Positions 38,220-39,125 of a stretch of DNA of 64,000 bases are shown here, piece after piece. This DNA comes from a bacterium. Lineage in GTDB: Bacteria; Eisenbacteria; RBG-16-71-46; CAIMUX01. The stretch is from the NCBI GenBank assembly GCA_030431975.1, contig JAUIHP010000009.1:62001-126000 (forward strand), in the 5' to 3' direction. Under the pieces are notes generated by a model. That model saw only the letters and a program-made list of their open reading frames with translations. It searched no databases and was not told where the DNA came from. The translations under genes were made by a program, and so were the position numbers. Positions within the stretch are counted from its first letter, which is position 1. Each line of letters begins with the position of its first letter.

Positions 38220-39125
38220 ATGGGGCTGTTCGAGACTCTTCAGTCTTGGTTCGGGAAGCCATCCCGGACCTCACGACGTCGCAAACGCAAATCAAATGAT
38301 CGCAGTGTGTACGACCCCGTGGCTCGCCGCTCTCCGCGGATGATGAACGCTGCGTCGGACTCGGCAACCGCGACGGCGTCGTCCAGGACTTCGACCGCCG
38401 CTCACGAACTGGACCGATCCACCGAGTCGGTCAGGGCTGAGGCCCAGGCTCGCGGCGCCTCGCCGATCGGCAGTTCGAGAGCCGGCCAGTCGAGGACCGG
38501 GGACACGACGAGCGGGCGACCAGGGAGCCAGAGTTCGAAGAACGGACGTGCGCAGAACAGAGACCTTCGAAGCGCCGCAACTCCGGACACAAACCCCGCC
38601 GCTTCCATGTCCACCTACTCCAACGGATTCGCATGGACCTCCGCAGAAGCGGCGGCAGCGCAGTCGACGAACGTCGACCGCCCCACGCCGGACGTCACGG
38701 CTGAGCCTGCGACCTCCAAGAGCGAAACGGTTCCAAGGAAGGACGAAACCGTGACGGAACAACCCGGGTCGGACGCCCCCCCGGTTCAGGTCCTTATGGA
38801 AGGCGGGCTCGCCGACCTCAAGAAGATCTCAAAGCACCTCTCGTCCGTCGGTGTGGAGTCACAGATCGTGATGCCCCCCGGCGGCTGCAACACCTGAGGC
38901 ACGAAACTCCAGCTCGCGGTCGCGAGCGTCGATGTTCAAAAGTCTCGGATGGCACTGCAGAGAAAATGGGAAGAGGAAGCGAGCGAAGAGCAGTTGCAGG
39001 CGGCGCAGCACGTCGTCAATTTGGATTCTGCAACTTTGACGTGTCCCGCGTGTCAGACGAGTTTCGACAATCCGGGACCCGGGGTTGCCTGTGAATGTCC
39101 GAACTGCGAGCTGAGGCTGGCGTAG
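38220..39125 (+). CDS. Candidate selenoprotein: DUF2007-like domain with C-x-x-U motif and zinc ribbon
   Basis: The frame opens at ATG 38220 (GGGAG 8 nt upstream) and meets TGA at 38895-38897 after 225 codons. The same frame runs on for 75 codons to TAG at 39123. Residues about 30-180 are a disordered Ser/Arg/Thr/Pro-rich linker. From about 192 (PVQVLMEGGLADLKKISKHL) there is a small alpha/beta fold like DUF2007 signal-transduction proteins. The TGA sits in P-P-G-G-C-N-T-(TGA)-G-T-K-L, a possible redox motif Cys-x-x-Sec. After it come the expected last strand (KLQLAVASVDV), a helix, and a zinc ribbon CPAC...CECPNC. A hairpin fitting the bacterial SECIS model follows the TGA. A plain stop, giving 225 residues, is the alternative. 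Sec machinery is not in this window. Confidence 0.7.
38912..38927 (+). promoter_or_regulatory. SECIS-like hairpin downstream of the in-frame TGA
   Basis: GCTCGC (38912-38917), loop GGTC (38918-38921), GCGAGC (38922-38927): a perfect 6-bp stem with a four-base loop. The loop begins 20 nt after the TGA, inside the 16-37 nt window of the bacterial SECIS model, and a G is in its first two positions as that model requires. The hairpin lies in coding sequence, as bacterial SECIS elements do. Confidence 0.65.

What the first reader, a model, noticed from the sequence alone, without database searches (positions are those of the whole stretch)
38220..39125. Candidate selenoprotein with a Cys-x-x-TGA motif and C-terminal zinc ribbon
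The frame meets TGA at 38895 directly after Cys-Asn-Thr and then continues, with no stop, for 75 codons. What follows is not random: it supplies the missing last strand of the preceding alpha/beta domain (G-T-K-L-Q-L-A-V), a helix, and a clean four-Cys zinc ribbon. Other genes here end in TGA, so it is not a reassigned code. I do not recall a described selenoprotein with this layout of disordered linker, DUF2007-like fold with Cys-x-x-Sec, and zinc ribbon. Sec in place of Cys would make a strong redox pair with the upstream Cys.
Basis: partly seen in the sequence, partly recalled or inferred. Interest (0 to 1): 0.92.

Follow-up and report, generated by a model that had tools for sequence, protein, structure and literature searches.

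The report
Divergent selenoprotein DG in an Eisenbacteria genome
The internal TGA in this gene very probably encodes selenocysteine: the genome has the full selenocysteine machinery and distant relatives keep the same TGA, but the protein belongs to a selenoprotein family (DG) first reported in 2025, so it is a new variant of something known.

Summary
The frame from 38220 meets TGA at 38895-38897 and stays open for 74 more sense codons to TAG at 39123. The open stretch alone is weak evidence (chance 11-21%). Comparative evidence is strong. Three other genomes (one in the same class, two of one genus in another phylum) keep an in-frame TGA at the same place and the same downstream strand, helix and four-Cys ribbon; Cys stands at or next to this position in further homologues. 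This genome has tRNA-Sec, selA, selB and a selD that itself contains an in-frame TGA. A 6-bp hairpin 20 nt after the UGA fits the published bacterial SECIS model and recurs in all four genes. The 'disordered linker' is doubtful: a GTG at 38751 behind AAGGAAGG gives a 124-aa protein like the other Sec members. CxxU spacing is not conserved. New here: the domain is related to zinc-ribbon/DUF2007 proteins, with Sec in the loop before its third strand. Function is unproven; a selenol redox or metal-responsive switch is most likely.

The parts
38220..39125 (+). longest reading of the selenoprotein gene (301 aa with Sec226), ATG 38220 with AGGGAG upstream, stop TAG 39123
   Evidence: translation with TGA=U; start context
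38751..39125 (+). alternative, shorter reading: GTG 38751 behind AAGGAAGG, 124 aa, the size and layout of the other Sec-containing members
   Evidence: start codon list and anti-SD duplex -7.4 kcal/mol against -7.5 for 38220; other Sec members are 113-115 aa
38262..38780 (+). Ser/Ala/Thr/Arg-rich, probably disordered stretch; translation uncertain
   Evidence: 10% hydrophobic, P 0.048 against a Markov-1 null; codon-usage score ambiguous
38781..39000 (+). DUF2007-related beta-alpha-beta-(Sec loop)-beta-alpha domain
   Evidence: NF049953 E 3.3e-15 over residues 188-300; hhalign 95.7% to zinc-ribbon/DUF2007 proteins; AlphaFold2 pLDDT 79.5, pTM 0.56
38895..38897 (+). UGA read as selenocysteine
   Evidence: in-frame TGA at the same place in L021/L038, L043/L073, L074/L081; Cys at or one residue from it in L039, L040, L042
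38912..38927 (+). SECIS-like hairpin GCUCGC-GGUC-GCGAGC, apical loop 20 nt after the UGA
   Evidence: folds; pair counts, one compensatory C-G to U-A in L038; fits the bSECIS constraints quoted; synonymous-codon null gives P 0.30 for this gene alone
39042..39122 (+). C-terminal zinc ribbon, CPAC...CPNC
   Evidence: sequence; all four Cys invariant in alignments A3 and A5

Best explanation
The gene encodes a small selenoprotein of the DG superfamily. SelB with Sec-tRNA(Sec) reads UGA 38895 as selenocysteine, directed by a hairpin directly downstream. The product is a DUF2007-derived beta-alpha-beta-beta-alpha domain with Sec in the loop before the third strand, followed by a structural C-terminal zinc ribbon. 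The Sec, with a second thiol whose position in the loop varies (Cys three residues upstream here), most likely forms a reversible selenenylsulfide or metal-binding switch on a small regulatory protein. Shown by sequence: conserved UGA, machinery, Cys alternation (to within one residue of register), downstream selection. Inferred: that Sec is actually inserted, and the whole of the biochemical function. The confidence given is for Sec decoding and family; the switch mechanism is about 0.5.
For: tRNA-Sec with anticodon TCA, selB, selA and selD with its own in-frame TGA in this genome. Conserved TGA and downstream protein in G011 (41-43% identical), G276 and G390 (39% and 37% identical). Genomes carrying a TGA form have tRNA-Sec where tested (G000, G011, G276). 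Three genomes with Cys forms (G272, G137, G235) show neither selA nor tRNA-Sec, while G194 has both and still uses Cys. dN/dS 0.25 downstream of the TGA between L043 and L074 at dS 0.85. SECIS-like hairpin at the same place in all four, meeting the published constraints. Fold.
Against: No peptide or selenium-labelling data. The hairpin in any one gene is not significant against synonymous recoding (P 0.06-0.30), and covariation rests on one pair change in one sequence of four (144 of 500 shuffles do as well). selA was not found over the cut-off in G011 (88% complete). selC was not searched in G390. The Cys alignment has a one-residue register ambiguity (KGCCG against NTUG). Gene neighbours are not conserved, so function rests on fold and motif only.
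Confidence: 0.93

Rival explanations
1. UGA is an ordinary stop; the gene makes a 225-aa (or shorter) protein ending at Cys-Asn-Thr and the downstream ribbon is an untranslated remnant or chance.
For: The open stretch after the TGA is not rare by itself (0.11 to 0.21); genes in this window do end in TGA.
Against: The downstream protein is conserved in three other genomes with the same in-frame TGA and evolves under purifying selection. Homologues without TGA run straight through. Termination would remove a core strand.
Confidence: 0.03
2. Recent nonsense mutation or sequencing error of a Cys (TGC/TGT) or Trp (TGG) codon: a pseudogene.
For: A single base change would give TGC, TGT or TGG.
Against: The same TGA is kept in four genes from two phyla at near-saturated synonymous divergence, and the genome has all four Sec genes.
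Confidence: 0.01
3. Programmed UGA read-through by a near-cognate tRNA without Sec, giving a minor extended form.
For: A hairpin after a stop can promote read-through in general (general knowledge).
Against: Cys, not Trp or Arg, occupies or flanks this position in several homologues; tRNA-Sec is present in the three TGA-form genomes tested.
Confidence: 0.03
4. Selenoprotein as in the best explanation, but acting as a metal or metalloid binding protein rather than a redox switch: Sec and the loop Cys are ligands. (A sub-case of the best explanation; its confidence overlaps with it.)
For: The spacing of the second thiol varies (CxxU, CxxxU, Cx7U), as ligands can; Cys forms carry two or three clustered Cys (CRKGCCG, CSRGC); in G390 the next gene downstream is a CobW/COG0523-type GTPase.
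Against: That neighbour is seen once only; other neighbours are PPK2 and a phosphate cotransporter (G011) or unrelated genes.
Confidence: 0.3

Closest known systems
Hypothetical protein DG / zinc ribbon-containing (seleno)protein DG (NCBIfam NF049953; deep-Sep paper PMC12013277, from Desulfosediminicola)
   Same: Homologous over profile positions 58-171 (E 3.3e-15): Sec loop, following strand and helix, C-terminal four-Cys ribbon; Sec and Cys forms both exist.
   Different: 56 bits against a cut-off of 130; no N-terminal zinc ribbon; Sec motif xUGxK instead of GUxG (as listed in the review PMC13188914), a one-residue difference; found in Ca. Eisenbacteria and one further phylum instead of Desulfosediminicola.
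DUF2007 (PF09413), including zinc-ribbon/DUF2007 proteins
   Same: Same order of strands and helices; profile-profile probability 95.7%; a DUF2007-like solved structure, 2hfv, is at Z 7.1, rmsd 4.0.
   Different: PF09413 itself does not score on the window protein; the ribbon is C-terminal; no Sec or Cys loop in the ordinary DUF2007 proteins seen here.
Ring-building domain of PrgK/EscJ
   Same: Best solved-structure match of the predicted domain, Z 9.9, rmsd 1.7, 57 residues.
   Different: A common small alpha/beta arrangement; no sequence relation, ribbon or Sec. A shared fold only.

Membership tests
Selenoproteins (bacterial UGA-Sec) | in-frame UGA conserved in homologues, with Cys replacing it in others | tested here: met
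   TGA in four genes; Cys in L039, L040, L042, with one-residue ambiguity for L039/L040
Selenoproteins (bacterial UGA-Sec) | SelA, SelB, SelD and tRNA-Sec in the genome | tested here: met
Selenoproteins (bacterial UGA-Sec) | bSECIS: 3-9 nt loop, 4-16 bp stem, G in the first two loop positions, 16-37 nt from UGA, MFE at or below -7.5 kcal/mol | tested here: met
   loop GGUC, 6 bp, 20 nt, -13.3 kcal/mol; not significant for one gene alone
Selenoproteins (bacterial UGA-Sec) | Sec found in the protein | not testable with these tools
   needs mass spectrometry or 75Se labelling
NF049953 (seleno)protein DG | score over the curated cut-off (130 bits) | tested here: not met
   56.4 bits; none of the homologues examined here meets it either, 66-88 bits
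NF049953 (seleno)protein DG | full profile, including the N-terminal ribbon (positions 1-57) | tested here: not met
   match covers 58-171 only; Cys forms L039-L041 do cover the N-terminal part
NF049953 (seleno)protein DG | homology over the Sec domain and C-terminal ribbon | tested here: met
   E 3.3e-15
DUF2007 (PF09413) | Pfam gathering score 25.7 | tested here: not met
   no PF09413 match up to E 10
DUF2007 (PF09413) | distant homology of the domain | tested here: met
   hhalign A5 against A7 95.7%, E 9.8e-9; L057 shows ribbon-DUF2007-ribbon

The most novel reading that the evidence does not exclude
A distinct, short DG subfamily (no N-terminal ribbon, xUGxK motif) found in Ca. Eisenbacteria and a second phylum, in which selenium is grafted onto a DUF2007 signal-transduction-type domain as a Sec-based redox or metal sensor.
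Probability: 0.4. Interest if true: 0.55.

Novelty: new variant of a known kind. Interest (0 to 1): 0.4.

Why it matters
It extends selenoprotein DG outside the Desulfosediminicola strains in which it was reported, to Ca. Eisenbacteria and one further phylum. It ties a family reported without conserved domains to the zinc-ribbon/DUF2007 group, and gives a compact 113-124 aa target for finding out what the Sec does. Gene callers that stop at TGA would truncate it.

Tried and rejected
Reassigned code: rejected, TGA ends 14 of 31 long ORFs. Open-frame length as evidence: rejected as weak. Single-gene SECIS significance: rejected. Rfam at the site: only chance matches. Sequence relatives in the PDB and in plasmids: none. 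The genome-contig scan found only the Eisenbacteria record already known, because its two patterns were poor; the viral scan found nothing. The Haft and Tolstoy 2025 paper (PMC12013261) is not held. Apparent NF049953 matches covering mainly the N-terminal half (L023-L028 and similar) are ordinary zinc-ribbon/DUF2007 proteins or frames over unrelated sequence, not DG. Conserved operon partner: none found. One Pfam call failed on a mistyped range. In one search the eighth protein was a made-up DUF2007-like yardstick, not a database sequence, and is not used as evidence.

Full report
What is there. The frame 38220-39125 reads 225 codons, TGA at 38895-38897, then 74 sense codons and TAG. The stretch after the TGA holds GTKLQLAVAS, a helix, and CPAC...CPNC. 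An open stretch of this length after a TGA is not rare at 61% G+C: 0.11 by base composition and 0.21 counted over all 1681 TGAs of the window. The case has to rest on comparison.

Machinery. The window's genome has tRNA-Sec with anticodon TCA, selB (366 bits with its second segment), selA and selD. selD itself has an in-frame TGA near its start, TCAGU, the place of the catalytic Cys/Sec in SelD proteins (general knowledge), so the genome has a second selenoprotein gene as an internal control.

Homologues. NCBIfam NF049953, 'zinc ribbon-containing (seleno)protein DG', matches residues 188-300 at E 3.3e-15. Searches over about 400 genomes found three more genes with an in-frame TGA: L021/L038 in G011, identified as Ca. 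Eisenbacteria by record JABDJR010000076.1; L043/L073 in G276; and L074/L081 in G390, same genus as G276. Around the TGA they read PPGGCNT-U-GTKLQLAVAS (window), PEDCGNT-U-GVKYRLAVAS, PPGSGHG-U-GTKFLLAVAS and PPGSGHG-U-GVQYLLAVAS. Forms without TGA read through with Cys: CRKGCCG (L039), CGKGCCG (L040), CSRGCK (L042) and GGCNCHG (L041); others lack any Cys in this loop (L044, L045, L052). The alignment puts the last Cys of KGCCG under the Sec, but the review's motif GUxG would put the first there; one residue of register is open. Three Cys-form genomes (G272, G137, G235) show neither selA nor tRNA-Sec. G194 has both and still uses Cys. G011 has tRNA-Sec but no selA over the cut-off in an 88% complete assembly.

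Selection. Between L043 and L074 the downstream part has dN 0.21, dS 0.85, ratio 0.25. The upstream part has ratio 0.69 on few sites.

SECIS. GCUCGC-GGUC-GCGAGC starts 14 nt after the UGA, with its loop 20 nt after it. The same hairpin is found in all four genes; in L038 it is GCUUGC-AGUU-GCAAGC, with one C-G pair changed to U-A by synonymous changes on both sides. It meets the constraints of the bSECIS model as given in PMC13188914. Caution is due: LAVAS in high-G+C codons forms such a stem easily (P 0.30, 0.095, 0.064 and 0.157 under synonymous recoding), and 144 of 500 shuffles do as well on covariation. The degenerate hairpin sequence occurs once in the window (0.01 expected).

Fold. AlphaFold2 on the domain with one homologue gives strand 4-10, helix 12-24, strand 29-32, loop with Sec41, strand 45-50, helix 51-68, then the ribbon (pLDDT 79.5, pTM 0.56). 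The DG profile is related to zinc-ribbon/DUF2007 proteins (95.7%, E 9.8e-9), although Pfam DUF2007 does not reach the window protein by itself. Structure matches are to the ring-building domain of PrgK/EscJ (Z 9.9) and the DUF2007-like 2hfv (Z 7.1, rmsd 4.0), which may reflect a common small fold.

Where the protein starts. The other Sec members begin just before the domain. In the window a GTG at 38751 follows AAGGAAGG and pairs with the anti-SD as well as the ATG at 38220 does (-7.4 against -7.5 kcal/mol). The Ser/Ala/Thr/Arg-rich stretch before it is poor in hydrophobic residues (10%, P 0.048) but its codon usage does not favour this frame. I hold both starts possible, so the 'disordered linker' should not be counted as part of the architecture yet.

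Novelty. 'Hypothetical protein DG' was reported as a new selenoprotein family with Cys- and TGA-containing homologues in 2025 (PMC12013277) and is listed as NF049953 with motif GUxG in a 2026 review (PMC13188914). The window gene is a homologue far below the NF049953 cut-off, without the N-terminal ribbon. It is a new variant of a known selenoprotein family, not a new kind.

Mechanism. I commit to a Sec-containing switch domain: the selenol, paired with a loop thiol whose position shifts between relatives, is oxidised or binds metal and changes the state of a DUF2007-type domain; the ribbon is structural. Only Sec decoding is well supported (0.93); the switch is inference (about 0.5, redox slightly ahead of metal).

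Noticed in passing
L018:1531-1533 (G000:C52): selD of this genome is itself a selenoprotein gene (TCAGU).
   Followed up: yes
window 38751: GTG behind AAGGAAGG, an alternative start that would remove the supposed disordered linker.
   Followed up: partly
L057 (G364), about 1501-1917: A zinc ribbon-DUF2007-zinc ribbon protein, an architecture between ordinary DUF2007 proteins and DG.
   Followed up: partly
L099:22-3159, minus strand (G235): A 1045-aa protein with HNH and RuvC_III domains and an RuvC-I-like start, Cas9- or IscB-like.
   Followed up: partly
L096:6080-7009 (G390): A CobW/COG0523-type GTPase gene directly after the DG selenoprotein gene, same strand.
   Followed up: partly
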